Of a stretch of DNA of 64,000 nt, positions 4,084 through 42,703 are shown piece by piece. Both the position numbers and the translations under genes were made by a program. The stretch lies in NCBI RefSeq assembly GCF_039543225.1, contig NZ_BAABJI010000002.1, positions 1,364,001 to 1,428,000 on the forward strand. Direction: 5' to 3'. This DNA is from Mucilaginibacter defluvii. Lineage in GTDB: Bacteria; Bacteroidota; Bacteroidia; Sphingobacteriales; Sphingobacteriaceae. The notes under the pieces are model-generated. The model was not told the DNA's origin. It saw only the letters and a program-made list of their open reading frames with translations, and did no database searches. Each line of letters begins with the position of its first letter. Position 1 is the stretch's first letter.

Positions 4084-5687
4084 TATATTTTATCGTACTT
4101 TTTAAGTTCTATCATTTTATCTACGGCAATTTCCTTTACAAAATACGCGTCGTGTGAGATCAATAACAAAGTTCCTTCGAAATCCTTAACCGCGGCTGTC
4201 AATACTTCCATGCTTTTAATATCCAGGTTATTGGTCGGCTCATCCAGGATCAACATATCAGGCGCATGATCGGATACGGATAAGCAGCATAATGCCAACT
4301 TCATTTTTTCACCACCACTTAACACACCGCTCCTTTTGTTCCAGGCATTACGATCAAACTGAGCATATATCAGCAACGACCTCAGTTCGTGCTCCTGCAA
4401 TTGCCGGCTGTCAAAATCCTGTAACTGTTCAAAAACGCTTTTCTCAGGATCGAGTATGGTGTAATCCTGGTCGAGGTACAAATAATTAAAATTCGCCCGT
4501 TCCAGTCGTCCGTCCGTTGGTTGCAGCATGCCAGTAACGATCTTAAGTAAAGTTGTCTTTCCTGCACCATTGGCACCTTTGATGTGCACGCGGTCGCCCG
4601 AACGTATTTGAAACGTCAGCGCATCCCATAAAGGATGCCTGTCAAATGCATAAGTGATCTCTTTTGCGTCAACCAACACTTTGCCTTTATGCATTCCTGA
4701 CGAGGTAATATCTATTTTGAGAACCTGATATTGTTGAATTTGACTGCGTATTTGCCTGATGTTATCGCTGATATGGTTTAGCTTTTCGTTTTGCGCGTTC
4801 AAGGCCTTTGCTGTACTGCCTTGAGCCTGGCTTCTCAGTCCACCCGCAATGATGCGGGGCAGCGATCCGGATTTGCCTTCTGCCTTGCCTCGGCTCTCCA
4901 TCCGCTGCCGTTTTTCTGCAACTTCTCTTGCTTGTGCCTGGCTTTGCTTCATGGTTTTGGTCTGCTCATGCAGGTCATTTTCCAGGGCATTCAACTTTAG
5001 ATATTTTTGTGCCTGGTAGAAATTAAAGTTGCCGCCGTAAACCTCTGCCTTAGAAAAACTTAGCTCAAGCGTTAACGGTAACAAGTTAAGCAAAGCACGG
5101 TCGTGACTTATTACCACAATTGTCGCCCGGCTATCACTGATCAGCCGGTACAACTGATCGCGGCTGCCTGTATCTAAATGGTTAGAAGGTTCGTCAAGTA
5201 AGATGATATCAGGATCATGGAGCGTGATCCCGGCTAAAAAGACTTTAGTCTTTTCACCGCCGCTTAATTCATGCAGTCTTTGTGAAGGCGATAAATGCTC
5301 AAGATGCCATTCCGCCATAGCTAAGTGTAATTTATCTTCGATCTCCCAGTCATCGTTCAGGTCATTAAAGTGTTGAATGTCGACACTGCCCTCAGTTATA
5401 GCTTTCAGAGCCGCTAATTTCAAGTCGACTGTTAAAGCCCGGGCAATGGTCATCTCATCATATTGTCCTAAATGCTGCGGCACATACCATGGTCTGGCCG
5501 GAATGCTCACGTGCCCTGTTGTCGGAGCAATAATACCTGCTACAATTTGCAGTAAGGTAGACTTACCAACGCCATTATTACCTACCAATGCAGCTTTATC
5601 ACCTTTGTCGATGGAAAATGTAATGTCGCGAAAGAGTTGTGTCCGGTCAGTATGACTATAACTTACGGAGTTGACAATTATGCTCAT
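4083..5687 (-). CDS. ABC-F family ATP-binding protein, ribosomal protection type
   Basis: A 534-residue protein with two ABC ATPase domains on one chain and no membrane segment, the ABC-F layout. Domain 1 has Walker A GNNGVGKST, signature LSGGEKTKV and Walker B IILLDEPSNHLD; domain 2 has GANGAGKTT, LSGGEKMKL and MLILDEPTNNLD. A charged linker joins them (HEQTKTMKQSQAQAREV region). ABC-F proteins act at the ribosomal E site; antibiotic-resistance members displace drugs. Start chosen at the ATG at 5687 (MSIIVNSVSY). First gene of a two-gene operon with the TetR gene. Whether it protects against drugs or is a housekeeping member cannot be told. Confidence 0.92.
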   Translation of the reverse strand: MSIIVNSVSYSHTDRTQLFRDITFSIDKGDKAALVGNNGVGKSTLLQIVAGIIAPTTGHVSIPARPWYVPQHLGQYDEMTIARALTVDLKLAALKAITEGSVDIQHFNDLNDDWEIEDKLHLAMAEWHLEHLSPSQRLHELSGGEKTKVFLAGITLHDPDIILLDEPSNHLDTGSRDQLYRLISDSRATIVVISHDRALLNLLPLTLELSFSKAEVYGGNFNFYQAQKYLKLNALENDLHEQTKTMKQSQAQAREVAEKRQRMESRGKAEGKSGSLPRIIAGGLRSQAQGSTAKALNAQNEKLNHISDNIRQIRSQIQQYQVLKIDITSSGMHKGKVLVDAKEITYAFDRHPLWDALTFQIRSGDRVHIKGANGAGKTTLLKIVTGMLQPTDGRLERANFNYLYLDQDYTILDPEKSVFEQLQDFDSRQLQEHELRSLLIYAQFDRNAWNKRSGVLSGGEKMKLALCCLSVSDHAPDMLILDEPTNNLDIKSMEVLTAAVKDFEGTLLLISHDAYFVKEIAVDKMIELKKYDKI

Positions 5688-5711
5688 AAAGATGCAAAAG
5701 TATGTCATCTT

Positions 5712-5726
5712 TTTTGTTCAACAAAA
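5712..5726. promoter_or_regulatory. Palindrome upstream of ABC-F/TetR operon
   Basis: TTTTGTT-C-AACAAAA is a perfect 7-bp inverted repeat around one central base, lying 25 bp upstream of the ABC-F start codon. Length and position fit a TetR operator overlapping the leader or promoter. Binding by the operon's own TetR protein is inference. Confidence 0.45.
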
Positions 5727-5857
5727 TTGTTTAAATAAATTTGATTGAAACGTTCGTATACTGGCTTGTCTAATTCAGGATCGGTTATGTCCGGTTCGCG
5801 CCAATATTGGTGGTCTAAAATGAAGCCAAGCTGTAGTTTAGTTAAAAATTACGCAGC

Positions 5858-6820
5858 ATGGTAAGTTCAAAAACACTTAAGAGGCTTTGGCCGATAGCCG
5901 GAATATTATTTGTGGGAATCGTTTCCATACAGTTTATGCAGGTTCCGGTGCAAAATGATGAAGTAACACACCCGATCAATGCACCGGAAGAAGTGACCAA
6001 AATTTTCAGGAAAGCCTGCTATGACTGTCATTCCAACGAAACGAAACTAAGCTGGTACGATAAGGTAGCTCCGGTATCATGGCTGGTCAATCATGATGTT
6101 AAGGAAGCTCGTTCACGCTTCAACTTTTCCACCTTTGACACGCTTAGCGTAACAGATCAGCAAGTGCGTTTATGGGAAATGGTGAACATGGTACTTGCAG
6201 GTAAAATGCCGCTGAACACTTATACCACACTACATCCTGGGGCTAAGCTTACGCCGCACGATGTAGAAGTACTAAAAAATTATGTAGTGAGCATCAGCCC
6301 GACAAAATACCATGATAGTACGCAGATCAAAAGCGCTGAAGAAGAGCAAAATGTTTTGGGAGAGAGATTAACTGCTTCTGAAAATATACCGGTAGCGCCC
6401 AACGGCGTCCGGTTCATCCCGGATTACAAAAACTGGGAGGTGATCAGTACGACCAGCCGCTTTGATAACCATACTATGCGTGTGATATACGGGAACAAAG
6501 TAACCGTTAATGCCATCCGAAGCGGGCGTATCAAACCCTTTCCGGATGGTGCAGCAATTGTTAAAGTAGTTTATAACATCATTGAGGAAAGGGATGGTAA
6601 AGTTCATCCGGGAGCATTTAATAACATCCAGATCATGATCAAAGATGAAAAGCGTTTCCCTGAGAGTAAAGGCTGGGGATTTGGTAAATTTAATGGTACC
6701 GGTCTTAAACCTTACGGTGAAACTGCGGCATTCAACACTGCATGCTACAATTGCCACAAGATAGCTGATGAAACGGGCTATGTGTTCAGCATTCCATTAG
6801 AAAATAAAGATCTTAAATAA
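5858..6820 (+). CDS. Haem-binding domain plus cytochrome P460-like protein
   Basis: A 320-residue exported protein. A membrane or signal segment (WPIAGILFVGIVSIQF) lies at residues 10-27. An N-terminal haem-binding domain carries CYDCH near residue 50, followed by the family pattern SWYDKVAPVSWLVNHDV and a GKMPL motif. The C-terminal half resembles the cytochrome P460 fold and has a second haem site, ACYNCHKIADETGYVFS. A two-domain c-type haem protein in the periplasm is predicted, possibly a peroxidase or nitrogen-oxide handling protein. Next to the lipoprotein at 6822 (1 bp apart), so probably co-expressed. Confidence 0.82.
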   Translation: MVSSKTLKRLWPIAGILFVGIVSIQFMQVPVQNDEVTHPINAPEEVTKIFRKACYDCHSNETKLSWYDKVAPVSWLVNHDVKEARSRFNFSTFDTLSVTDQQVRLWEMVNMVLAGKMPLNTYTTLHPGAKLTPHDVEVLKNYVVSISPTKYHDSTQIKSAEEEQNVLGERLTASENIPVAPNGVRFIPDYKNWEVISTTSRFDNHTMRVIYGNKVTVNAIRSGRIKPFPDGAAIVKVVYNIIEERDGKVHPGAFNNIQIMIKDEKRFPESKGWGFGKFNGTGLKPYGETAAFNTACYNCHKIADETGYVFSIPLENKDLK

Positions 6821-6821
6821 A

Positions 6822-7262
6822 ATGATAAAAATGAAGACATTTGCAATGTTGCTATGTGTGATTGCCGGATCATACGGATGCGCCAATAATACATCAAATG
6901 ATGGCCAAAAAAGAATTATTCACAACGCTCATGGCCTGAAAGTGATCACCTCTTTTTCTGACCGTAAACAGCAAACCATTTCCCTTTTGTATGGTAATGC
7001 ACCCGCCTTACAAAGTGCCAAAACAGGCATACACGATAAGGGAGAGTTATTTGAATTGGTAACATTTAAGCAGGCTGACAATAAATACTGGTATGGCAGT
7101 TACATTAATGGTGCGGTTCAAAGTATCGAACGGGTCACTTCATATATTGCAGATAAAAATGACATCGCTTTTAAATATGAGATAACCCAAGGCCATATTT
7201 CGGGTAATGCCGGTATAAGAATAAAAAGCATTACCTCGCACCGGGCCTTGCTGTTTCCATAG
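6822..7262 (+). CDS. Putative lipoprotein
   Basis: A 146-residue protein with a short signal peptide and lipobox (VIAGSYGC, Cys near residue 20), hence likely a lipoprotein. The mature part is beta-rich and polar and not recognised. It begins one base after the haem-binding/P460 gene and is probably its operon partner; it could also begin at the inner ATG at 6831. Function unknown. Confidence 0.65.
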   Translation: MIKMKTFAMLLCVIAGSYGCANNTSNDGQKRIIHNAHGLKVITSFSDRKQQTISLLYGNAPALQSAKTGIHDKGELFELVTFKQADNKYWYGSYINGAVQSIERVTSYIADKNDIAFKYEITQGHISGNAGIRIKSITSHRALLFP

Positions 7263-7327
7263 CAGTTCTGTAACTAGAGCTAAATAAATAGCTTTGTTCA
7301 TTATCAACCCGTTGGCTGATTAATATA

Positions 7328-8353
7328 ATGTTAATGAAAAGATCACCACTACATATATCACATACCACTATCTGGGTCAGCGCTGTTACCCTTGGTTTGC
7401 TTTCATCAGTACCGCAACTGGCCTCTCATAAATTTAATGTTGCCGAGGCGGCGGTCAACGCGGGGATTACCGCTGCCTTTGCCGTGTTGATGTGGTATTT
7501 CAATATCTACATGCTATCACGAAAAAAAGATAGTAAACGCGTGCAAAGCATATCTTACACCAAATTGCTTAGTTCGTTGCTATTCGGGCTTGTGATAATG
7601 TTCGGATTGGCATGGGTCCAGCAACTGATACTTTCTCATATCAATTTCGGCCCCACCATGCTGATGGTTGAGGTACGGGGCATACTCATCAACCTGGTAT
7701 TTTATATGTTTTTAAATCTTCTGCAGCAGAACTACGAAAACCAGCATGTCAGTATGGAATTAGACAAGATCAAAAGCGATAACCTGGCAGCTCAGTATGA
7801 ATTGTTGAAACAGCAGATCAACCCGCACTTTCTATTTAACAGCTTGAATACATTAAAGGCCATGGTAGAAACGGGCGACAAAGAAGCGGTTGACTTTATC
7901 CTTAAGCTTTCCAACTTCTACCGCTTTACACTGGAAAGCCGCAAGCTCGACCTGATACATGTGCATGAAGAAATGGAAATTATGAATGCCTACCTCTTTC
8001 TGCAAAAAGCCCGCTTTGAGGAAGGTTTGAAATTTACCTCAGCGCTTACCGAAGGTACACTGAAGACCCTGATACCACCATTTACACTGCAACTGTTGAT
8101 AGAAAATTGCATCAAGCACAATGTTGTTTCCTTAAGCCGCCCTTTACACATCACCATTTACGAAGACGGTGAATACATCATTGTAGAAAATTTATTGCAG
8201 GTAAAAAAAGGAGATGTGAGTTCAACAGGTGTCGGACTGAAAAATATAGGTTTACGTTACAGCCACCTGCTTGATAAGAATATTGAGATCACAAACGACG
8301 AAAAAACTTTTAAGGTAAAACTGCCACTTATTTATGAACATCATAATCATTGA
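7328..8353 (+). CDS. LytS/YehU-type sensor histidine kinase
   Basis: A 341-residue membrane kinase. Four hydrophobic segments fill residues 10-135, then a helix leads to the phosphoacceptor motif LLKQQINPHFLFNSLNTLK (His_kinase family, PF06580). The ATPase domain follows with LLIENCIKHNVV (N box) and GVGLKNIGLRYSHL (G box). It autophosphorylates and passes phosphate to the LytTR regulator encoded next, whose start overlaps this gene by 20 bp. This is the intact counterpart of the broken system at 33.8-35.1 kb. Signal unknown. Confidence 0.92.
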   Translation: MLMKRSPLHISHTTIWVSAVTLGLLSSVPQLASHKFNVAEAAVNAGITAAFAVLMWYFNIYMLSRKKDSKRVQSISYTKLLSSLLFGLVIMFGLAWVQQLILSHINFGPTMLMVEVRGILINLVFYMFLNLLQQNYENQHVSMELDKIKSDNLAAQYELLKQQINPHFLFNSLNTLKAMVETGDKEAVDFILKLSNFYRFTLESRKLDLIHVHEEMEIMNAYLFLQKARFEEGLKFTSALTEGTLKTLIPPFTLQLLIENCIKHNVVSLSRPLHITIYEDGEYIIVENLLQVKKGDVSSTGVGLKNIGLRYSHLLDKNIEITNDEKTFKVKLPLIYEHHNH

Positions 8354-9306: not shown

Positions 9307-10515
9307 TCAAACCTGGCGTTTCTTGATTTTTCTTCCCCATTTACGGTTATACCAAATGATAAACCCGGTTACCGGCATACTCGCGCCGATCATACATGCC
9401 AAGAAGGCTAAAATCTTTGTAGGCAGCCCTAAGATCTGGCCAGTATGTATATCAAAATTCATCCGGAACATTTTTTCACCTGTTGATAAATTAGCATAGG
9501 GTTGGTCATGTTGTCCAAGTGGCGGTAATTCCCTGAGCGTTTTTTGATCAAAAAAATGAACAGCCCTGTTGTAGAGCAAAGTTCCATCACCGAAATAAAC
9601 GGTCGCTTCATAAGCTGCTGATGGTTTATCGGGTATGTTTATGGATATGCTTCCAAACCTACCGTCATGTTTCCGGCTCAACTTGTTCCATATAAAGTCT
9701 TCCGGATGGTTAAATTTAGCAATGGTCGCCGTCGTATCCGATCTTGGATCCAGATGTTCTTCATCCAGGGCCTTCCACGTCAATACCTTGTAAGTGCCTT
9801 GCTGGAACCACTCAAACGTAAAGAATATCCCGGATAAGGTTAAGGCCAAAACAAACAGCACGGAATAGAAGCCGATCACATTGTGAATGTCTATATTCAG
9901 CCGTTTCCATTTCGCCCGCCATTTTACAGTAAACGAGTCTTTAACGATTTTCTTAGTCCACCTTTTGGGATACCACCAAATTAAACCGGTTATAATAGTA
10001 ATAACAAAAATGATACAAGCGGAACCCACGACCGGGCTTCCAATATTCCTTGGGAGCCATAGAAACCGGTGGCCCGCACGGATAAATATGAAAAAGTTAT
10101 CAGCCGCACTCTGCTCGCGTTGGTCTTTTAAGATTTCACCTGTATATGGATTTAAATATATTTCCGCCTGTTGCTGTTCCGGCAAGGTAAAATTAAGTGT
10201 CACGGAGCGACCTGCCTTCCAGTATTTGATGCTGGTTAGCGTATCGTTGGTGATGTGTTGGGTCTTAAAATAAACTCTTGACCGGGCTAATAGTTCCGAC
10301 GGGGGCAGGTATGGTTTCTGCTGCGCCTGGACGTACCAGTGCTTTTCAGTAAATCGCCAGACCTCGTATCGCCATACCCAAATGCCACCTGTAAAACAAA
10401 CGATGAATACAATAATGCCCGATGTTAAACCCAGCCAGAGATGCAGCCATTCGGATACTTTACGAAAGCCGGATTTTTTTTCTTTTGGGGATCTTCTTTT
10501 TGTTGCGGTAAGCAT
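9307..10515 (-). CDS. PepSY-associated transmembrane protein, iron uptake type
   Basis: An inner-membrane protein of about 402 residues with four transmembrane segments (LWLGLTSGIIVFIVCFTGGIWVWRYEV near residue 35; IIFVITIITGLIWWYP near 185; VLFVLALTLSGIFFTFEWF near 225; ILAFLACMIGASMPVTGFIIWYNRK at the end). The pattern HLWLGLTSG and the periplasmic PepSY-like region fit proteins that act as ferric-siderophore reductases or permeases. It lies 36 bp downstream of the TonB receptor gene on the same strand, a standard pairing. I use the ATG at 10515; one at 10536 is possible. Confidence 0.88.
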   Translation of the reverse strand: MLTATKRRSPKEKKSGFRKVSEWLHLWLGLTSGIIVFIVCFTGGIWVWRYEVWRFTEKHWYVQAQQKPYLPPSELLARSRVYFKTQHITNDTLTSIKYWKAGRSVTLNFTLPEQQQAEIYLNPYTGEILKDQREQSAADNFFIFIRAGHRFLWLPRNIGSPVVGSACIIFVITIITGLIWWYPKRWTKKIVKDSFTVKWRAKWKRLNIDIHNVIGFYSVLFVLALTLSGIFFTFEWFQQGTYKVLTWKALDEEHLDPRSDTTATIAKFNHPEDFIWNKLSRKHDGRFGSISINIPDKPSAAYEATVYFGDGTLLYNRAVHFFDQKTLRELPPLGQHDQPYANLSTGEKMFRMNFDIHTGQILGLPTKILAFLACMIGASMPVTGFIIWYNRKWGRKIKKRQV

Positions 10516-33790: not shown

Positions 33791-34531
33791 TTAATTGAAA
33801 CTGTTATCCGGCGGCGGCAGCGATAGCATTTTGGTATTAATAAAGTCAAAGAAAGCCTTTTTGTAAGCATCACCGATCGTAATGGGTTGCTCTTCGTTCA
33901 AAATTCTGACCATGTTGCCCTCAACTGCTGTCAGGTGGCTGAGCGAAATGATATAGGATTTATGCACTCTTACGAACCCTCTTGCCGAAAGACTTTCTGA
34001 AAGCTCTTTCAGCTTTAGATAAGTAATGATCTTTTTTTGATCGTCCATATGGATGATCGCGTAATTACTCAGACCTTCAATATAAGTAATCCTGCGTGCG
34101 TCGATCTTAAGTAGTTTTCCCTTTTGTTCGGTTTTGACAAACACATAATGATCCTGATCTGTTGCCGGTCGAAGACTGCTGTGGATTGTCCAGAGCCTGT
34201 TCACGGCCTTCAAAAATCGAAGGAACTGAACGGGTTTCAGCAAGTAATCGACAACCTGGTGTTCAAAACCCTCGATAGCATATTCCTTGTATGCAGTGGT
34301 CATAATGATATGGCTGTCCTTACTGATAAGCTTAAGCATTTCGATCCCGGTAAGCTGAGGCATCTGCACGTCCAAAAAAACAAGGCCGGGTTTCAGATCC
34401 GTGATCATGGCCAATCCTTTGACAGGATTTGTCGCCGTACCCACCACGAGCAGAAAATGCACCTGGCTGATATGTTGAAGAAGCAGATCTATTGCGTGCT
34501 GCTCATCGTCTATAATAACGCAATCGATCAT
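33791..34531 (-). CDS. LytTR-family response regulator of the broken two-component pair
   Basis: A 246-residue regulator with receiver domain (IIDDEQH acidic pair, Asp in LVFLDVQMPQLTG, Lys in YLLKPVQ) and LytTR output domain (YIEGLSNYAIIHMDDQKKIITYLKLKEL, then GFVRVHKSYIISLSHLTAVEG). It appears intact. Its kinase gene, overlapping by 29 bp upstream, has lost its phosphoacceptor. The direct-repeat promoters at 35.4-41.9 kb, with 21-bp periodicity as used by LytTR proteins, make this protein a prime candidate for controlling them, perhaps now independently of phosphorylation by its partner. Confidence 0.92.
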   Translation of the reverse strand: MIDCVIIDDEQHAIDLLLQHISQVHFLLVVGTATNPVKGLAMITDLKPGLVFLDVQMPQLTGIEMLKLISKDSHIIMTTAYKEYAIEGFEHQVVDYLLKPVQFLRFLKAVNRLWTIHSSLRPATDQDHYVFVKTEQKGKLLKIDARRITYIEGLSNYAIIHMDDQKKIITYLKLKELSESLSARGFVRVHKSYIISLSHLTAVEGNMVRILNEEQPITIGDAYKKAFFDFINTKMLSLPPPDNSFN

Positions 34532-35132
34532 ACTCGAATTTTATATGTAAAGTTACACTAAAAGTTAAGCCGGTGTCTGCTATCACAAAGCTACAGCCTT
34601 CACCGTAAGTCAGCTTCAGCTGTTGTCTGATGTTTTGCAGGCCGACGCCGTTAGACAGTTCCTTGATCCCTTTGCCTTTCTTGTTCCCGATCTCAAAAGT
34701 GAGTCCGTTGACAGCGGTGTTTACCCTGATCTGTAAGGGATGTTCAGGATCATGCAGATAGCCGTGCTTGAATGCGTTCTCTACCAGCGTGATCAGCACC
34801 AACGGAAGAATGCTTATTGACTGGTCATCTATCTGCTCTTCGTACCTGATGTTCAAATGATGGTCGTGACGGCGCTGATTGATTTCCACCACATTCTTCA
34901 GGTGCTCAAGTTCATCCATGATATTCACTTTACCATCAAGGCTTTCACTGCTGCCCAGGGCATAGCGCATGATATTAGCCAGCATCAGGACCGAATCGGC
35001 GGTCTCCCTGTCCGTTTTGATCACCTTACCGTAAATAAAGCTTAACGAATTAAACAAAAAATGCGGGTTGATCTAGGCTGCGAAAAGTCCCATAACCAGG
35101 AATGTGATAAGAAAAATTGTTGTTGCCTTCAT
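34503..35132 (-). pseudogene. LytS-type histidine kinase truncated at the H-box
   Basis: The kinase part is intact from the H-box onward: INPHFLFNSLSF, then VLITLVENAFKHGYL (N box) and GVGLQNIRQQLKLTYG (G box). However, a TAG codon at 35073-35075 sits exactly where the family has Gln (xAQINPHFLFN; one base from CAG), and before it only a short segment, MKATTIFLITFLVMGLFAA, is open, so the sensor domain is missing. Translation from the TTG at 35057 would omit the phosphoacceptor His. Probably non-functional as a kinase. Confidence 0.8.
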
Positions 35133-35373
35133 TTTACCGTAGGGTGTGTTTGCGTTTTTGATACCTATAACAAACGGCATTATGGAGCGTCAGGCATTTT
35201 TACGCCTTTTGGATAAAAACCGTAATATAACTGCATTAGCGGAAGTGCAACTTTTTGCTTGAAGAGTATTATAAAAGGATTGATGTAAATTCAAAACTTG
35301 AAATCACGGAAGAAGAAGGAGAAATATGCATTATGCGATTTTCTGGCAAATGCAACTCGGCATCACAGAATTT

Positions 35374-35429
35374 GGCAATGCAATACCGCAATATGGCAAA
35401 ATGAAAATGTGCTATGATACAGACCTTTG
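35374..35429 (+). promoter_or_regulatory. Direct-repeat promoter, copy A (before SnoaL-like gene)
   Basis: GGCAATGC at 35374 and GGCAAAATG at 35395 are 21 bp apart with ACCGCAATAT between. A TTTG lies at 35426, exactly 31 bp after the second GGC, matching the -7 TTTG of Bacteroidota promoters. The start codon at 35454 follows by about 25 bp. The same arrangement recurs at 37018, 38717 and 41833. Confidence 0.75.
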
Positions 35430-35453
35430 GATAATAAACAAATCTTAGATATC

Positions 35454-35930
35454 ATGGCTAAAGAGAATAACAACAACGAACTGACGCTAAAAATCTATAA
35501 AGCATTCGCAAACAATGATCTGGCGCAATGGGATGGTGTGATACACCCGGATGTGAAACTAAACAGCCCGGCCGGTCGCGGCTTAGCAGGAATAGAAACG
35601 CTTAAATCATTTGCCGGAGCATTTCACGCTGCTTTCCGTCCGACAGTCGACCTGATCGATCATTATGTGGCCGGTGACAGAGGCCTAGTAACGGTCAACC
35701 TGCACTGGAAACATGATGGTGAAGAATTTTACGGTATCAAGCCAAGCGGTCAGGGCGGTACTTCAGTAGAAACTTTCCTGCTGCGTATCGAGAACGGTTT
35801 GGTGACGCATTGGGATACCGCTGACAACTCACTTGATCTGGCCAACTACCTTTTCAGCGAAGGTTATGATCTGCCGAAAGAAGTAAAACCACCGGCGCTG
35901 ATCGAGGGACCGAACATCCACGGCAGATAA
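35454..35930 (+). CDS. SnoaL-like polyketide-cyclase-type protein
   Basis: A 158-residue NTF2-fold protein (YKAFANNDLAQWDGVIHPDVKLNSPAGRGLAGIETLKSFAGAFHAAFRPTVDLIDHYVAGDRGLVTVNLHWKHDGE pattern), the SnoaL family. The ATG at 35454 is chosen because the promoter TTTG is at 35426, which rules out the TTG at 35427. Members act as isomerases or cyclases or bind small ligands. It is the first gene controlled by the shared direct-repeat promoter, divergent from the LytTR pair. Confidence 0.85.
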   Translation: MAKENNNNELTLKIYKAFANNDLAQWDGVIHPDVKLNSPAGRGLAGIETLKSFAGAFHAAFRPTVDLIDHYVAGDRGLVTVNLHWKHDGEEFYGIKPSGQGGTSVETFLLRIENGLVTHWDTADNSLDLANYLFSEGYDLPKEVKPPALIEGPNIHGR

Positions 35931-35948
35931 GTTTAGGAAATGTAAATA

Positions 35949-35978
35949 TTAACCTGCAATTAAAACATTCAAGGTTAA
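35949..35978. promoter_or_regulatory. Inverted repeat before AraC gene
   Basis: TTAACCT and AGGTTAA form 7-bp arms separated by 16 bp, 20 bp upstream of the AraC start codon. It could be an autoregulatory site or a weak stem-loop after the SnoaL gene; there is no T-tract. Confidence 0.35.
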
Positions 35979-35997
35979 TGCTTTAAATTTATAAATC

Positions 35998-36921
35998 ATG
36001 AAAAAGGAAAGAACCGCTACGGTAAACACCAGAACGCTTTCGGAGATCCACCGGGACCATGGCCTGCCTGTTCCGGCGCATCCGCTGATCAGTCTGATCG
36101 ACTGGCCGAAACACCAGATCCCAAAAAACAATTTTCCGGGTACCGTTGTCTCGGGCTTCTACCGTATCACTTTAAATATTGGCATGAGTGGTAAGTCCAA
36201 ATACGGACAAGGCCATTATGACTATTCGGAAGGCGGAATGACCTTCGTCGCGCCAACCCAGGTGATCAGCCCTTGTGTTTACGATGTGGCGGATGACTGG
36301 TCGATGTATACGCTGCTGATTCATCCCGATTTTCTGTGGAACTATCCAATCGCGAAAACCATTAAACAGTACGGCTTTTTCTCCTACAATACGAATGAGG
36401 CGCTGCACCTTTCCGATAAAGAAAGGAATACGATCATCACCATTTTTCAGAACATCGAAGATGAACTGAACAGCCGGATCGATGATGTCAGCCAGGATGT
36501 AGTCATCGCGCAGATCGAATTGTTGCTGAACTACGCGAACAGGTTCTATAAACGTCAGTTCATTACGCGCAAGGTCGTCAACAATGATCTCCTGCAAAAA
36601 ATGGATGATATTCTGGACGGATACCTGAATGGTGATAAAACACTGAGCGAAGGCATTCCAACCGTTCACTTCCTTGCCGAGAAACTGAATGTTTCGCCGA
36701 GTTATCTCAGTGATATGGTGCGCTCGGTGACTGGTCAGAGCGCGTTGGGAGTGATCCATCAGAAGATCATTGAGAAAGCAAAGGAAAAGCTGTCGGGAAC
36801 GAATATGTCTGTCAGTGAAGTGGCTTATGAACTCGGCTTCGGTCACCCTTCTTCCTTTACGAAATTGTTCAAAGCAAAGACCGATATGTCTCCGCTGGAG
36901 TTCAGAAAGTCTTTTAATTAA
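35998..36921 (+). CDS. AraC-family transcriptional regulator
   Basis: A 307-residue AraC protein. The N-terminal cupin-like half (GGMTFVAPTQVISPCVYDVADDWSMYTLLIHPDF) is typical of Bacteroidota members; the two C-terminal helix-turn-helix motifs are FLAEKLNVSPSYLSDMVRSVTGQ and MSVSEVAYELGFGHPSSFTKLFKAKTDMSPLEFRKSF. It lies inside the set of genes sharing the direct-repeat promoter, so it is the alternative candidate to the LytTR protein as their activator. It ends at a strong terminator and has no copy of that promoter itself. Confidence 0.92.
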   Translation: MKKERTATVNTRTLSEIHRDHGLPVPAHPLISLIDWPKHQIPKNNFPGTVVSGFYRITLNIGMSGKSKYGQGHYDYSEGGMTFVAPTQVISPCVYDVADDWSMYTLLIHPDFLWNYPIAKTIKQYGFFSYNTNEALHLSDKERNTIITIFQNIEDELNSRIDDVSQDVVIAQIELLLNYANRFYKRQFITRKVVNNDLLQKMDDILDGYLNGDKTLSEGIPTVHFLAEKLNVSPSYLSDMVRSVTGQSALGVIHQKIIEKAKEKLSGTNMSVSEVAYELGFGHPSSFTKLFKAKTDMSPLEFRKSFN

Positions 36922-36963
36922 GGGCCTATTTTCAATTTCAAATACGCTGCGGGTGTAGCGTTA

Positions 36964-37000
36964 AACCTTCGGGATGATCCATCCTGAAGGTTTTTTATTT
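36964..37000 (+). terminator. Intrinsic terminator after AraC gene
   Basis: AACCTTCGGGATG and its imperfect complement CATCCTGAAGGTT form a stem with a short loop, followed by TTTTTTATTTT. It lies 43 bp after the AraC stop codon and just before direct-repeat promoter copy B, insulating the two units. Confidence 0.8.
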
Positions 37001-37017
37001 TGTTACCGTCGAGTTAC

Positions 37018-37073
37018 GGCAAAGTAATACCTCAATACGGCAAAATGCTGTTGTTGCCACATCCGGAAATTTG
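37018..37073 (+). promoter_or_regulatory. Direct-repeat promoter, copy B (before MFS gene)
   Basis: GGCAAAGT at 37018 and GGCAAAATG at 37039, 21 bp apart with ACCTCAATAC between; TTTG at 37070, exactly 31 bp after the second GGC. The likely initiation codon at 37101 follows. Nearly identical to copies A, C and D. Confidence 0.75.
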
Positions 37074-37165
37074 ACATCGTTTCAAATAAATGATGTCAAT
37101 ATGATCAGTCCAACCGAAAATAATAACGCCAACGATGCCGTATCGCCAAACCCGCGCGGGATCTA

Positions 37166-38686
37166 TTGCTGATAGCGGTCTGCTGCGTAGCGGTCGCCAC
37201 CCCATTTTGTTTCACCGGGATCGCTGTCGGCTTACCGGCGATCAGCCGTTCGCTCGGCGGCACACCGATACAACTGAACTGGGCGATCAACTCCTTTCTG
37301 CTAACCTTCGGCAGTACACTAATGGCTGCGGGCGCTTTAGCAGATAACTATGGCCGTAAACGTCTGTTGCTTTGGGGACTGGCCATCTTTGGTTTTTTCT
37401 CGATCTGTCTTGCATTTTCGGCCAACATCCTGTGGTTCGATATACTACGTGCTTTACAAGGTTTGGGTGCAGCTGCTGCCTTCGCAGGTGGCTTTGCTTC
37501 TCTGGCGCAGGAATTTGACGGATCAGCAAGGTTAAGGGCTTTCAGTATCGTGGGCACCAGTATCGGCATCGGGCTTGCGTTCGGACCGATCGCCGCCGGA
37601 TGGCTGATCGCGCACTTCGGCTGGCCGGCCATTTTTGTGTTCGTGCTGGTACTTGCTGTACTCGCCTTATTATTTGCAGCTATTTTCATGCGGGAATCCC
37701 GTGACCCGGAGGCCGCCGGGCTGGACTGGAAAGGTGCGATCAGTTTTACGCTCGCACTGTCAGCTTTTACCTTCGGTATCATACAAGGACCGGAAAGCGG
37801 ATGGTCGCATCCGCTGGTGGCCGGACTTTTAGGTGGATCAGGCTTACTCTTCGGCATTTTTGTACTGATAGAAAGGGCTTCCAAACGCCCGATGCTGGAC
37901 CTGTCCCTGTTCCTTTTCCCGCGTTTTGTGGGCGCGCAGTTACTGGCGATCGCGCCGTCGTTCGCTTTCGTGGCGCTTTTAGTACTGCTGCCTGTTCGTT
38001 TTGTGGGTATCGAAGGAATGGATGAACTTGCCGCCGGCCAGTTGATGGTCGCCCTGTCCGCACCTTTTCTCATCCTGCCCATCGTGGCAGGCCTGCTCAC
38101 CAGATGGTTCGCCCCGGCGACCATTTGCGGTGCCGGGCTGGCGATCTCTGCTGCCGGTCTTTACTGGCTCAGCCAGCACCCTGCGGGCACCGACCCGGTC
38201 GCGCTGATCGGCCCCTTGTTAACGGTCGGTGTGGGCATCAGCCTGCCCTGGGGATTGATGGACGGCCTCGCCGTTAGCGTGGTCCCGAAAGAACGCGCCG
38301 GCATGGCGACCGGCATCTTCAGTACCTCGCGTGTAGCTGGCGAAGGCGTTGCCCTGGCTATCGTAACAGCGTGTCTTTCCGCACTGATCAATACCAACCT
38401 GAGAACGGCGGTCAATAGCAAGGCCAATGCAGTAGCCCAGCTTTTGATTACGGGAAATTTAAAAGGCGCGTCAGCACTGGTCCCGCAGGTAGATCAAACA
38501 ACGCTCTTGCTGGGTTACAATAACGGATTTACGGCTGCGCTTTGGTTGTTAAGCGGCATCACCCTGGTAACCGCCCTGACGGTATTCCTGTTCCTGGGGC
38601 AAAGCCATCAGACGGTCGAGGCTATCGAGCAGGAAGCGGAGATCACTGCGGCGCATGAGCCGCCTACCGATGAGCGAACTTCCTGA
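37166..38686 (+). CDS. MFS multidrug exporter (DHA2 type) with 5' frameshift
   Basis: A 14-TM exporter of about 506 residues. TM1 is IAVCCVAVATPFCFTGIAVGLPAI, motif A is ADNYGRKRLLLWG, and the antiporter motif is near GFASLAQEFDGSARLRAFSIVGTSIGIGLAFGPIAAG. The upstream ATG at 37101 encodes a plausible leader (MISPTENNNANDAVSPNPRG) but is in another frame; adding one T at 37163-37164 would join it as GILLLIAVCC. As read, translation must start at a TTG (37166), giving a short but complete TM1. Either a recent frameshift or a sequencing slip. GC-rich and unlike the flanking genes. Confidence 0.8.
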   Translation: MLIAVCCVAVATPFCFTGIAVGLPAISRSLGGTPIQLNWAINSFLLTFGSTLMAAGALADNYGRKRLLLWGLAIFGFFSICLAFSANILWFDILRALQGLGAAAAFAGGFASLAQEFDGSARLRAFSIVGTSIGIGLAFGPIAAGWLIAHFGWPAIFVFVLVLAVLALLFAAIFMRESRDPEAAGLDWKGAISFTLALSAFTFGIIQGPESGWSHPLVAGLLGGSGLLFGIFVLIERASKRPMLDLSLFLFPRFVGAQLLAIAPSFAFVALLVLLPVRFVGIEGMDELAAGQLMVALSAPFLILPIVAGLLTRWFAPATICGAGLAISAAGLYWLSQHPAGTDPVALIGPLLTVGVGISLPWGLMDGLAVSVVPKERAGMATGIFSTSRVAGEGVALAIVTACLSALINTNLRTAVNSKANAVAQLLITGNLKGASALVPQVDQTTLLLGYNNGFTAALWLLSGITLVTALTVFLFLGQSHQTVEAIEQEAEITAAHEPPTDERTS

Positions 38687-38716
38687 TGACATTGTTTTTA
38701 CAAAACTCGAAAAGTC

Positions 38717-38772
38717 GGCAATGTATTCCCTCAAAACGGCAAAATCCGAAACGGCGGGTATGCTGACCTTTG
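38717..38772 (+). promoter_or_regulatory. Direct-repeat promoter, copy C (before NADP-binding gene)
   Basis: GGCAATGT at 38717 and GGCAAAATC at 38738, 21 bp apart with CCCTCAAAAC between; TTTG at 38769, exactly 31 bp after the second GGC. The gene start at 38824 follows by 52 bp, a longer leader than in the other three copies. Confidence 0.75.
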
Positions 38773-38823
38773 ACATTAGAAAAGAACATGTGTAAGAACA
38801 CAATAAACCAAAAGAAAAATAAG

Positions 38824-39522
38824 ATGAAGATCGGAATTTTGAATACCGGAAACATCGGCTCAAGACTCGCCAGGGCGTGGGTAGCAGCCGGACATGAATT
38901 GGTCATTGCACAGGATGGCGATTACTGGAACCTGGAACCACTTTTAAAAGAATTGGGAGAAAAAGCCCGTTATGGCACGATACGGGAAGCTGCCGAGTTT
39001 GGCGATGTCCTGCTATTTTCAGTTTACTGGCCGCGCCTGGAAGCTGTACTGGAAGCTGCCGGTGATGCCCTCAACGGCAAGATAGTGATCGAGACCATGA
39101 ACCCGCTGGGCGTTACTGAAGAGTTCGTTCATTATCACGACCTGGAATTCATGAAGAACAGTTCGACCGCTGAAACCTTGCAGTCACGCATCCCGACCGC
39201 GAAAGTGGTGAAAGCATTTAACATCCTACCGGCACCAACACTGGAACCGGCAGCATGGAAAGATAACCCGGTAAAACCCAACATATTTTACGCAAGCGAC
39301 GATGCGGAAGCCGGAAAAGCAGCACGCGGACTGATCGTCGATGCCGGTTTCACACCGTTGAATACTGGCGAACTGAAATCAGCACGTGCCATTGAGCAAC
39401 TGGGTGTACTGATGCACCGTGTTGCCAACCACGAGTATAACGGGGATGAAACGCTTATCCGCCTCGGCGTGTCTGTAATCCAGGCACAACCGGGCCCGAT
39501 ATTCCGCGAGAACCTGGTATAA
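38824..39522 (+). CDS. NADP-binding F420-reductase-like oxidoreductase
   Basis: A 232-residue Rossmann protein: ILNTGNIGSRLARAWVAAGHELVIA at the N-terminus, then GKIVIETMNPLG and VVKAFNILPAPTLEP, the pattern of the NADP-oxidoreductase, coenzyme F420-dependent family (ProC-like fold). In bacteria without F420 these proteins use NADP(H) with unknown acceptors. Start set at MKIGILNTGN (38824); the ATG at 38770 lies inside the promoter. A second member of the family is encoded at 40985. Confidence 0.85.
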   Translation: MKIGILNTGNIGSRLARAWVAAGHELVIAQDGDYWNLEPLLKELGEKARYGTIREAAEFGDVLLFSVYWPRLEAVLEAAGDALNGKIVIETMNPLGVTEEFVHYHDLEFMKNSSTAETLQSRIPTAKVVKAFNILPAPTLEPAAWKDNPVKPNIFYASDDAEAGKAARGLIVDAGFTPLNTGELKSARAIEQLGVLMHRVANHEYNGDETLIRLGVSVIQAQPGPIFRENLV

Positions 39523-39643
39523 GCCACATTCGTTTGCCGCAGATACAGATCGCGGTGTTTATGGAATTGATCAGTAAGCGCTTTTAGCCAAAGTACGGAA
39601 CAGCATGGGGTCAGCCATCGCCATGTTGTTCCATATACTGCTG

Positions 39644-40021
39644 TCAGGCAGTTACTGCGTTTTGTTGCGGAGTTTCCTTAGACTCGCGTAATACGACCTG
39701 ACGGTGTGTTTTACCCCAATCGGAAAGATCATAGATCAGGTTTTGTAGGGACCAGCCATATTCGGTCAGGTTATATTTTACCGATACAGGCGTTGTGTCC
39801 AGGACTGTTCTTTTAACCAGTTTGTTCTCCTCCAGGTCTTTGAGCTCTTTGCTCAACTGTTTATTGGAGATCCCGTGCAGGTCATTTAAGATCTCGGAGA
39901 ACCGGCGATCATTGTAATAACACATAGAGGAAATGATGGAGATCTTCCATTTTCCGTTGAGTACATCCATCGCATCATGGATAGCAAGGATGTCGCGTTT
40001 GTGGCAAATTTCTTCTGTCAT
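39644..40021 (-). CDS. HxlR-family transcriptional regulator
   Basis: A 125-residue HxlR protein: DVLNGKWKISIISSMCYYNDRRFSEILNDLHGISNKQLSKELKDLEENKLVKRTVLDTTPVSVKYNLTEYG. Cys residues at the N-terminal arm (EEICHKRD) and in helix 2 (SSMCYYN) could be redox-sensing. Divergent from the SDR gene at 40125 with a palindrome between. It sits inside the direct-repeat regulon block but does not share its promoter. Confidence 0.92.
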   Translation of the reverse strand: MTEEICHKRDILAIHDAMDVLNGKWKISIISSMCYYNDRRFSEILNDLHGISNKQLSKELKDLEENKLVKRTVLDTTPVSVKYNLTEYGWSLQNLIYDLSDWGKTHRQVVLRESKETPQQNAVTA

Positions 40022-40048
40022 AAGTTACTTGGTTACCTCAAATATACC

Positions 40049-40071
40049 GTTACTTTAGGTTACAAAGTAAC
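40049..40071. promoter_or_regulatory. Palindromic operator candidate, HxlR/SDR pair 4
   Basis: GTTACTTT-N7-AAAGTAAC is a perfect 8-bp inverted repeat, and further GTTAC half-sites occur at 40024, 40032 and inside the centre. It lies 28-50 bp before the HxlR start and 54 bp before the SDR start. Likely operator of the adjacent regulator. Confidence 0.6.
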
Positions 40072-40124
40072 GAAAATAAATTGAGTTGACCTATGTTTGC
40101 ATCGTTAATTAAATAATCAAGAAA

Positions 40125-40868
40125 ATGAGTTCATCAAACAAAAATGTAGTAATAACCGGTGGTAGTCAGGGAATTGGCTTAGCCACCGCAAAACAATTTA
40201 TCGGTCAGGGCGCTAATGTTTGGATCACCGGCAGAAATGCAGATAACCTGAAAAAAGCTGCTGACGAGATCGGCAGCGCAAACTTGAAAACTGTTGTCTC
40301 CGATACTTCGAAATTCGACGGAATCGCTGCTTTGGAAAAAGCGATCGCCGATAGCGGCGTAAAGATCGACGTATTATTCCTGAACGCAGGTGTTGCCGCT
40401 TTCGCACCGATCGAGCACGTTACCGAAGCGGACTTTGACATACAGTTCAATACCAACGTTAAAGGCCATTTCTTCACGCTGCAAAAGCTGATCCCGCATT
40501 TGGCTGACGGGGCATCGATCACGTTCACCTCTTCAGGTGTGGCAACAGGTTCAGCTATTGCGACCGCTGTTTATTCAGCGACCAAAGCGGCCATCAATAA
40601 GATCGCTGATGTAGCATTGAACGAACTTGCGCCAAGAAAGATCCGTGTAAATATCGTTAGCCCAGGCCCGATCGCTACTCCGGGTCTTGATTCGGTTGCA
40701 CCGCCGGAAGCTCAGGCCTACCTGGCTTCGACCACTGCGCTGCAACGTGTTGGTACCGCTGACGAGATCGCAGGCGCTGTGGTATTCCTGGCCAGCGAAG
40801 CTGCCGGTTATATCAACGGTGCAGATATCGCGATCGACGGTGGCTTTATCCAGTACCACTTGAAATAA
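40125..40868 (+). CDS. SDR-family oxidoreductase
   Basis: A 247-residue short-chain dehydrogenase, TGGSQGIG motif, NAG in VLFLNAGVAAF, Ser in ITFTSSGVA and catalytic YSATK, with PGPIATPG loop and GADIAIDGG end. It resembles the SDR at 76-816 in length and in the LAPRKIRVN segment, suggesting the two HxlR/SDR pairs are paralogous. Divergent from the HxlR gene; followed 116 bp later by a NADP-binding protein gene. Confidence 0.93.
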   Translation: MSSSNKNVVITGGSQGIGLATAKQFIGQGANVWITGRNADNLKKAADEIGSANLKTVVSDTSKFDGIAALEKAIADSGVKIDVLFLNAGVAAFAPIEHVTEADFDIQFNTNVKGHFFTLQKLIPHLADGASITFTSSGVATGSAIATAVYSATKAAINKIADVALNELAPRKIRVNIVSPGPIATPGLDSVAPPEAQAYLASTTALQRVGTADEIAGAVVFLASEAAGYINGADIAIDGGFIQYHLK

Positions 40869-40984
40869 ACCGTTGGCGGGTAAGTACAAAGGAATATCCC
40901 GGATACCCCAATAACAAACAGTAACGCCGGAAACCGCAGGTTCTCCGGCTTACTCATTCTTATCATCCTATAAATTCATATCTT

Positions 40985-41812
40985 ATGTCAGAGGAAATAA
41001 AAACATCAAAGAACGATCATCAGATCAGAACGGTAGGCATTATCGGCACAGGACAGATCGGTACGACGCTTGCCCGTTTATCGGTAAGGGCGGGTATTTA
41101 CGTCGTACTCAGTAACACGCGTGGGCCGGAAAGTTTGAAATCACTTGTCGCAGAATTGGGTCCGCTGGCAAAAGCCGGTAGCATCAGCGAGGCAATCGGA
41201 GCAGCGGATATTATTGTTGCCACGATACCTTTACCGAACTACAGATCATTACCTGCCGACAAACTATCAGGAAAGATCGTGATCGACACCATGAATTATT
41301 ATCCCATCGGTTACAATATCGAGGAACTGGATAATAATAAGTTCACTTCGAGTGAACTGGTACAGCAACACCTGATCGGATCGGAGGTCGTGAAAGCGTT
41401 CAACAATATTCCATATCCACATATCGCCCTGCATGCAAGGCCCAAAAATGACCCCGGCCGTACGACAATTCCTATTGCTGGTGATGATGAGGCGGCGAAA
41501 GCTGCGGTCGAGCAGTTCACCAATAAGATCGGTTATGATACCGTAGATGCGGGCACACTTGCCGAAAGCTGGCGATTTGAACCGATGACGCCGATCTATT
41601 ACTGGCCATATGCGCCTGTTGTTCCGGAGGGGTCTAACGACGCCGACGCACGCAGGATCTATCAGACCACATTCGTTGATCCGCTGAGGCCAACTGCCGC
41701 ACAACAACTGCTTAAAGAGACCGAACGGAAGACCCCTGTAGGCGGACGCCTTGATATCCTTCCACCGATCCATCTAAAGTTATACGAGGAATTCACGCAA
41801 GGCAGGTACTAA
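40985..41812 (+). CDS. NADP-binding F420-reductase-like oxidoreductase
   Basis: A 275-residue Rossmann protein: VGIIGTGQIGTTLARLSVRAGIYVVLSNTRG, then IVIDTMNYYPIGYN and VVKAFNNIPYPHIA, and GDDEAAKAAVEQFTNKIGYDTVDAGTLAESWRFEP, matching the same family as 38824 with a longer C-terminus. No copy of the direct-repeat promoter was seen before it; it may be transcribed with the SDR at 40125. Confidence 0.85.
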   Translation: MSEEIKTSKNDHQIRTVGIIGTGQIGTTLARLSVRAGIYVVLSNTRGPESLKSLVAELGPLAKAGSISEAIGAADIIVATIPLPNYRSLPADKLSGKIVIDTMNYYPIGYNIEELDNNKFTSSELVQQHLIGSEVVKAFNNIPYPHIALHARPKNDPGRTTIPIAGDDEAAKAAVEQFTNKIGYDTVDAGTLAESWRFEPMTPIYYWPYAPVVPEGSNDADARRIYQTTFVDPLRPTAAQQLLKETERKTPVGGRLDILPPIHLKLYEEFTQGRY

Positions 41813-41832
41813 AAAGCAGCAATACCAGATTC

Positions 41833-41888
41833 GGCAAAGTATTCCCGCAAAACGGCAAAATGGAAAAGCATGGCATTGCGGAAATTTG
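41833..41888 (+). promoter_or_regulatory. Direct-repeat promoter, copy D (before SDR gene)
   Basis: GGCAAAGT at 41833 and GGCAAAATG at 41854, 21 bp apart with CCCGCAAAAC between; TTTG at 41885, exactly 31 bp after the second GGC. The SDR start at 41912 is 24 bp downstream. Confidence 0.75.
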
Positions 41889-41911: not shown

Positions 41912-42703
41912 ATGGCACAAGAAAATGAGTTAAAGAATGGTAAGGTATTAGCCAATACAACAGCATTAGTAACAGGCGGTTCACGCGGCATTGGCCGTGC
42001 GATCGCTGAAAGGCTTGCCGCAGATGGCGCATTGGTGGCCGTTACCTACAATGCAAGTAAGGATGCAGCGGAAGAAGTGGTTGCGGGTATCGAGCAAGCG
42101 GGCGGCAAAGCATTCGCGCTTTTCGCTGACCTGGTGAACGCTTCAGCGATACCAGCCTTATTTGAGCAACTGGATACCGAACTGACCAGCCGTACTGGCA
42201 GCAATGTGTTGCATATCCTGGTAAATAATGCAGGAAACTCAGGCTGGGGCGGTTTGGCTGACGCCACACCGGAAAGCTTTGATACCATGTTCGCAGTACA
42301 TGCACGCGCGCCGTTTTTTATGACCCAGGCGGCACAAAGCCGTTTATCAGATGGTGGCCGTATCATTAATATTTCGTCAGGTCTCGCCACACGCCCCTTG
42401 CCAATGGTCCCGATCTATTCGATGGCCAAGGCTGCTATCAATACGCTAACCCATGCCTTAGCGATGGAATTGGGCAAACGCGGGATCACCGTTAATTCAG
42501 TGGCTACGGGCTGGACCAAAACGGATATGAACGCTGCGGTACGCGAAAATTCGGATATGGTCAAATCTATTGAGGCAGATACTTCACTTGGCCGTTTCGG
42601 AGAAACTTCAGACATCGCATCTGTTGTTGCCTTTCTTGCCTCACATGAGGGCCGTTGGGTAACCGCGCAGGTAATTGAGGCGAGCGGCGGCTATAGACTT
42701 TGA
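41912..42703 (+). CDS. SDR-family oxidoreductase
   Basis: A 263-residue short-chain dehydrogenase: TGGSRGIGRAIAERLAADGALVAVTYNA cofactor motif, NNAGNSGWG, Ser in INISSGLA, catalytic YSMAKAAIN and a C-terminal segment VIEASGGYRL. Start at the ATG at 41912, because the ATG at 41870 lies upstream of the presumed transcription start. Last gene with a direct-repeat promoter and the last before decayed mobile DNA. Confidence 0.93.
   Translation: MAQENELKNGKVLANTTALVTGGSRGIGRAIAERLAADGALVAVTYNASKDAAEEVVAGIEQAGGKAFALFADLVNASAIPALFEQLDTELTSRTGSNVLHILVNNAGNSGWGGLADATPESFDTMFAVHARAPFFMTQAAQSRLSDGGRIINISSGLATRPLPMVPIYSMAKAAINTLTHALAMELGKRGITVNSVATGWTKTDMNAAVRENSDMVKSIEADTSLGRFGETSDIASVVAFLASHEGRWVTAQVIEASGGYRL

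What the first reader, a model, noticed from the sequence alone, without database searches (positions are those of the whole stretch)
35374..41888. Four promoters share a 30-bp direct-repeat element, exactly spaced to TTTG
Copies at 35374, 37018, 38717 and 41833 have GGCAAWG then, 21 bp after the first GGC, GGCAAAAT, with CCBCAA in the middle. In every copy TTTG begins exactly 31 bp after the second GGC, and the gene start follows by 24-52 bp. They precede a SnoaL-like gene, an MFS exporter, an F420-reductase-like gene and an SDR. Two direct repeats with 21-bp period are what LytTR regulators such as YpdB, AgrA or AlgR bind; the second repeat abuts the -33 region as in class II activation. The LytTR gene at 33791 is next to copy A; the AraC protein at 35998 is the other candidate. 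I know of no description of this regulon.
Basis: partly seen in the sequence, partly recalled or inferred. Interest (0 to 1): 0.85.

Follow-up and report, generated by a model that had tools for sequence, protein, structure and literature searches.

The report
AraC regulon with twin-repeat promoters
Four genes or operons in this Bacteroidota genome share one promoter switch, which comparative evidence assigns to a neighbouring AraC-type regulator and not to the nearby LytTR protein; it is a new example of a well-known activation layout that also recurs, with different letters, beside related AraC genes across the phylum.

Summary
In detail: four near-identical 29-bp elements (35374, 37018, 38717, 41833), 21-bp direct repeats, TTTG exactly 31 bp after the second GGC. 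They are the only copies in the 4.66-Mb genome. The layout is class-II-like, but the regulator is almost certainly the AraC protein (35998-36921), not the LytTR protein. The element follows AraC orthologs (83% in Dyadobacter soli, 70% in genome G233) where no LytTR ortholog exists, and is missing from genomes that keep the LytTR ortholog. More distant AraC homologs carry their own version, CTCATTTTGGCTACAA twice at 21 bp with the same 31-bp step to TTTG, before an SDR or AKR gene followed by AraC. Residues in the two AraC recognition helices covary with the matching boxes of the half-site. TTTG is the end of a -7 box that reads [GC]AnnTTTG instead of TAnnTTTG (59 of 60). This is AraC/XylS-type activation as in XylS and CphR: a new, undescribed member of a known kind. 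Binding, inducer and activation are untested.

The parts
35366..35403 (+). Element A: two 17-bp half-sites (35366-35382, 35387-35403), before the SnoaL-like gene and AraC
35422..35429 (+). -7 box of promoter A, GACCTTTG
   Evidence: family-wide [GC]AnnTTTG
35454..35930 (+). SnoaL-like protein (PF12680/PF07366), probable first gene of the operon with AraC
35998..36921 (+). AraC-family regulator (HTH_18; weak AraC_binding N-terminal domain), proposed regulator of all four promoters
   Evidence: comparative
37010..37047 (+). Element B, two 17-bp half-sites, before the MFS exporter
37066..37073 (+). -7 box of promoter B, GAAATTTG
37166..38686 (+). MFS exporter (DHA2/EmrB-like); N-terminus appears frameshifted relative to G037
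38709..38746 (+). Element C, two 17-bp half-sites, before the F420-reductase-like gene
38765..38772 (+). -7 box of promoter C, GACCTTTG
38824..39522 (+). NAD(P)-binding oxidoreductase (PF03807, npdG-like)
41825..41862 (+). Element D, two 17-bp half-sites, before the second SDR
41881..41888 (+). -7 box of promoter D, GAAATTTG
41912..42703 (+). SDR-family oxidoreductase (SDR2)
39644..40021 (-). HxlR-family regulator, divergent from SDR1; no element here, probably separate control
40125..40868 (+). SDR1; no element of its own
40985..41812 (+). second PF03807 oxidoreductase; no element of its own in this genome (a similar gene in G233 has one)
33791..34531 (-). LytTR response regulator: considered and rejected as the regulator of the elements
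34503..35057 (-). Remnant of the histidine kinase partner of LytTR; sensor half deleted

Best explanation
The four elements are operators of the AraC-family protein encoded at 35998-36921. Each is two tandem 17-bp half-sites, 21 bp apart. A protein dimer would bind them, with the first helix-turn-helix (HTH1) of each monomer on the upstream C-box and the second (HTH2) on the GGC-box. Using the mapped flavobacterial -7 box position (-12 to -5), the proximal half-site covers about -47 to -31 and the distal one about -68 to -52. The activator would therefore stand in for the missing -33 box and recruit RNA polymerase to a weak [GC]AnnTTTG -7 box. The regulon is local and autoregulated: SnoaL-AraC, an MFS exporter, an NAD(P)-binding oxidoreductase and an SDR. 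I infer that it responds to a small reactive or toxic compound, such as a carbonyl or other electrophile, that the enzymes reduce and the pump exports. Shown by sequence: the elements, their geometry, their co-inheritance with AraC, and covariation with its recognition helices. Inferred: binding, activation, the transcription start and the inducer.
For: Genome-wide specificity: four copies, all within 6.5 kb around AraC. In 150 same-genus genomes the element occurs in only three: this one, the syntenic G037 (4 copies, AraC 94%), and a relic in G080. D. soli (AraC 83%) has three copies, including one degenerate copy before AraC itself. G233 (AraC 70%) has five, before MFS, both oxidoreductase types and SDR2, in a different gene order. 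In these 17 copies TTTG is at +31 in 16 and +30 in one. Among 142 AraC homologs, 33 have at least 12 of 17 matching letters between half-sites 21 bp apart with TTTG at +31, against 0-4 for the other 23 periods tested from 10 to 33 bp. The homologs' consensus is CTCATTTTGGCTACAA, and the next gene is usually an SDR or AKR followed by AraC. HTH1 recognition-helix residues covary with the A box and HTH2 residues with the B box; 0.18% of random residue-window pairs show as strong a contrast. LytTR orthologs of 78-90% occur in G042, G089, G144 and G081 with no element; G233 and D. soli have only LytTR proteins of 43% or less.
Against: No binding, expression or transcription-start data. The residue-base covariation is modest and partly confounded by relatedness: the best single pair (residue 289 and the third base of GGC) rests on 3 well-supported independent pairs of sequences, nearly always in the expected direction or neutral, too few for significance. 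The AraC that carries the GGCAAAA operator is one lineage, so its own specificity change has one origin. The AraC sits next to its operators, so adjacency alone would not separate it from other local regulators; the argument rests on co-inheritance. Repression instead of activation is not excluded.
Confidence: 0.92

Rival explanations
1. The LytTR response regulator (33791-34531) binds the elements and activates the four promoters, as YpdB or AgrA do.
For: LytTR operators are direct repeats of 9-11 nt with 11-13 nt spacers, so a 21-bp period fits; YpdB binds GGCATTTCAT repeats. The gene is near copy A.
Against: Genomes with LytTR orthologs of 78-90% (G042, G089, G144, G081) have no element. 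G233 and D. soli have the element but no LytTR ortholog. Only 3 of 80 AraC-homolog loci have any LytTR homolog nearby. The kinase partner here has lost its sensor half. The element has no match to the classical LytTR motif recalled from the literature.
Confidence: 0.03
2. AraC binds the elements but represses these promoters until an inducer arrives, the proximal half-site blocking RNA polymerase.
For: The proximal half-site overlaps the -33 region, where a repressor would also block; AraC proteins can do both (own knowledge). Position inferred.
Against: There is no recognisable -33 box, and the -7 box departs from consensus at its first base in 59 of 60 unbiased family cases, which suggests promoters that need help rather than blocking. 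The layout equals that of the activators XylS and CphR.
Confidence: 0.12
3. The repeats were copied together with the genes by recent duplication and are not kept by selection.
For: The cluster contains paralogous oxidoreductases and SDRs.
Against: Sequence around the elements is unrelated between copies. The same 21/31-bp geometry is kept with different letters in AraC homologs of 50-66% identity, and with variable spacer letters.
Confidence: 0.01

Closest known systems
XylS at the Pm promoter (AraC/XylS family)
   Same: Two direct repeats, TGCA-N6-GGNTA, the second overlapping the -35 box (PMC4225500). The family-wide B box here is GG[C/A/T]TA, which fits GGNTA; XylS repeats also have a 21-bp period (own knowledge).
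   Different: The A box is CTCA with a 4-bp gap to GG, not TGCA-N6. The promoter is of the Bacteroidota type (-7 TAnnTTTG-like). In the window's own lineage the B box is GGCAA, not GGNTA. No aromatic-acid pathway.
CphR of Rhodococcus (AraC type)
   Same: 15-bp repeats at -35 to -49 and -55 to -69 (PMC6205950), close to the -31 to -47 and -52 to -68 inferred here.
   Different: Different phylum, sequence, targets (chlorophenol oxidation) and sigma consensus.
AraC on araI1-I2 of E. coli
   Same: Tandem 17-bp half-sites 21 bp apart, the proximal one overlapping the -35 region, cluster-local and autoregulatory (own knowledge). The C-terminal domain matches AraC over 81 residues.
   Different: No sign of looping sites; the inducer-binding domain is only weakly AraC-like; targets are not sugar genes.
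YpdB/AgrA-type LytTR operators
   Same: Direct repeats with a period of about 21 bp upstream of the promoter.
   Different: The regulator does not co-occur with the element.

Membership tests
AraC/XylS-type class II activator with its operator | Regulator has a C-terminal domain with two helix-turn-helix motifs | tested here: met
   PF12833 at 1.5e-21; aligns with AraC and SoxS structures
AraC/XylS-type class II activator with its operator | Two direct-repeat half-sites of about 17 bp with 21-bp period | tested here: met
AraC/XylS-type class II activator with its operator | Proximal half-site overlaps the -35 (here -33) region at fixed distance from the promoter | tested here: met
   TTTG at +31 in 16 of 17 copies; transcription start inferred from the -12 to -5 box position in PMC9723704, not mapped
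AraC/XylS-type class II activator with its operator | Operator co-inherited with the regulator gene | tested here: met
AraC/XylS-type class II activator with its operator | Regulator binds the operator and activates transcription | not testable with these tools
   indirect only: helix-box covariation
LytTR response-regulator operon | LytTR gene present wherever the element is | tested here: not met
   absent as ortholog in G233 and D. soli
LytTR response-regulator operon | Element present wherever the LytTR ortholog is | tested here: not met
   G042, G089, G144, G081
LytTR response-regulator operon | Direct repeats of about 9-11 nt spaced by 11-13 nt | tested here: met
   spacing is compatible, so spacing alone cannot separate the two families

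The most novel reading that the evidence does not exclude
Across Bacteroidota a large AraC subfamily forms many parallel, self-regulated AraC plus SDR/AKR modules. All share one rigid geometry (21 bp, then 31 bp to a [GC]AnnTTTG -7 box), while operator letters and recognition-helix residues drift together (Lys/Arg 289 with C/T, His/Tyr 283 with C versus A or T, Gln to Ser 285 with TACA to AAAA). This would be a readable protein-DNA code that keeps up to eight or more paralogs per genome from cross-talking.
Probability: 0.45. Interest if true: 0.6.

Novelty: new member of a known kind. Interest (0 to 1): 0.42.

Why it matters
Operators of Bacteroidota AraC proteins are, as far as the held literature shows, largely undescribed. 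This gives a precise operator, promoter geometry and regulator for one regulon, plus a family-wide consensus that predicts targets next to many AraC genes. The covariation offers a natural data set for reading the specificity code of the AraC family. The tight non-consensus -7 box suggests inducible, low-background promoters that could be tested as genetic parts in Bacteroidota.

Tried and rejected
My first pattern had wrong spacing and found nothing. Two isolated 3-mismatch hits in other genomes (G172, G198) lack TTTG at +31 and any AraC nearby, so they are chance. A search of 395 phylum-wide genomes for close AraC orthologs added only two of about 60% identity. Plain mutual information over all residue-base pairs is noisy, with N-terminal residues also scoring high; only the helix-versus-box contrast against random windows is usable. 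Phylogenetically independent pairs for single residues point the right way but are too few for significance. Searches of open-access papers found no description of this regulon or family operator; a paper in a closed journal could exist. I ran no structure prediction because the sequence-level evidence settled the question.

Full report
Observation. The four copies are exactly where stated and match GGCAAWGYAWTMCCKCAAWAYGGCAAAAT without mismatch; none is expected by chance in the window. The whole 4.66-Mb genome contains only these four at up to three mismatches. TTTG starts exactly 31 bp after the second GGC in each. They precede a SnoaL-like gene followed by an AraC-family gene, an MFS exporter, an NAD(P)-binding oxidoreductase (PF03807) and an SDR. 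The genes in between (an HxlR regulator, SDR1 and a second PF03807 protein) have no copy.

Which regulator. Comparative data decide this. In 150 genomes of the same genus the element occurs in only three: this genome; G037, which has the same cluster with four copies; and G080, which has one copy before a SnoaL fragment and has lost AraC. Outside the genus, Dyadobacter soli has an AraC ortholog of 83% with three copies, one of them degenerate and lying before AraC itself. G233, another genus of the family, has an AraC of 70% and five copies in a rearranged cluster. Neither D. soli nor G233 has a LytTR protein closer than 43%. Conversely, LytTR orthologs of 78-90% in G042, G089, G144 and G081 come with no element; G042, G089 and G144 keep both the kinase and the neighbouring gene of unknown function, while for G081 only the kinase was seen. 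In this genome the kinase next to LytTR is broken: its catalytic half is joined to the signal peptide of a neighbouring lipoprotein gene with a stop between them, whereas G037 has an intact 356-residue kinase.

A family-wide operator. Loci of 80 AraC homologs from across Bacteroidota and others from related genomes were scanned. Without assuming any letters, direct repeats with TTTG downstream are enriched only at period 21. With 17-bp half-sites and TTTG at +31, 33 of 142 homologs reach 12 matches, against 0-4 for the other 23 periods tested from 10 to 33. The half-site consensus is CTCAWTTTGGCTACAA. A leave-one-out profile finds it in most of the roughly 107 loci, nearly always upstream on the AraC strand. 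The start codon follows about 30 bp after TTTG, and the next gene is usually an SDR or aldo-keto reductase, then AraC. The window's element is the same object with GGCAAAA in place of GGCTACA and a degenerate upstream box in the first half-site. Only 3 of 80 loci have a LytTR homolog nearby.

Protein-DNA covariation. In 99 AraC proteins with a confident operator (effective number about 48), covariation of the HTH1 recognition helix (residues 234-246) leans to the A box and that of the HTH2 recognition helix (282-293) to the B box; only 0.18% of random pairs of residue windows show as strong a contrast. These windows share the same phylogeny, so the control is fair. Leading residues are 235, 239 and 242 (one helix face) and 289. 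By the SoxS alignment 235, 239, 285 and 289 fall where MarA uses Trp42, Arg46, Gln92 and Arg96 (own knowledge). Lys289 goes with C or A and Arg289 with T at the third base of GGC (9 of 10 in each half-site). Independent contrasts on the tree point the same way but are too few for significance. The GGCAAAA lineage has Ser285/Thr288 (HPSSFTK), while nearly all GGCTACA homologs have Gln285 with Ser or Asn 288; the tree nests this lineage within the GGCTACA family, so GGCAAAA is probably derived.

Promoter. In flavobacteria the sigma-A -7 box TAnnTTTG lies at -12 to -5 (PMC9723704). That puts the proximal half-site at about -47 to -31 and the distal at about -68 to -52. Among 60 family operators chosen without looking at the box, 59 have A at its second position and 59 have G or C, not T, at the first; the background is 31% A and 30% T. 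So the TTTG is the end of a real -7 box, with a consistent departure at its first base, and no -33 box is visible. The simplest reading is a promoter that depends on its activator. CphR sites at -35 to -49 and -55 to -69 (PMC6205950) and XylS repeats overlapping the -35 box (PMC4225500) are the closest described parallels.

Function. The targets are two oxidoreductase types, an EmrB-like exporter and a SnoaL-like protein. The divergent HxlR protein is most similar to redox-sensing RrpA/RrpB models, though below their cut-offs. I infer control of a detoxification response to a reactive small molecule; nothing here identifies the inducer.

Verdict. The regulator is AraC (0.92), the mode most likely class II activation (about 0.85). 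The kind of system is known; this regulon and the family operator were not found in the open-access papers searched.

Noticed in passing
window 34503-35130 (-): The histidine kinase beside the LytTR gene has lost its sensor half: the frame reads a lipoprotein signal peptide, a stop, then INPHFLF of the kinase. In G037 both genes are intact.
   Followed up: partly
window 37090-37166 (+): The MFS gene after copy B is out of frame with the ATG behind the promoter; compared with G037 there is a frameshift near the N-terminus, a real mutation or a sequencing error.
   Followed up: partly
L121 (G080) around 9892-10240: Relic of the cluster: one intact element before a SnoaL fragment; AraC and the other target genes are gone.
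   Followed up: partly
L163 (G233) 4513-7952: Second, partial copy of the cluster about 135 kb away, with AraC, SDR1, SDR2, HxlR and one element.
   Followed up: partly
operators of AraC homologs, L011-L250: The -7 box in this promoter family is [GC]AnnTTTG instead of TAnnTTTG in 59 of 60 cases.
   Followed up: yes
L048, L118: Contigs labelled Gammaproteobacteria and Rickettsiales MAGs carry Bacteroidota-type AraC genes, L048 also the operator; probably binning contamination.
   Followed up: no
G000:C2:657090-657818: A second LytTR gene in this genome is 83% identical to the one in the window.
   Followed up: no
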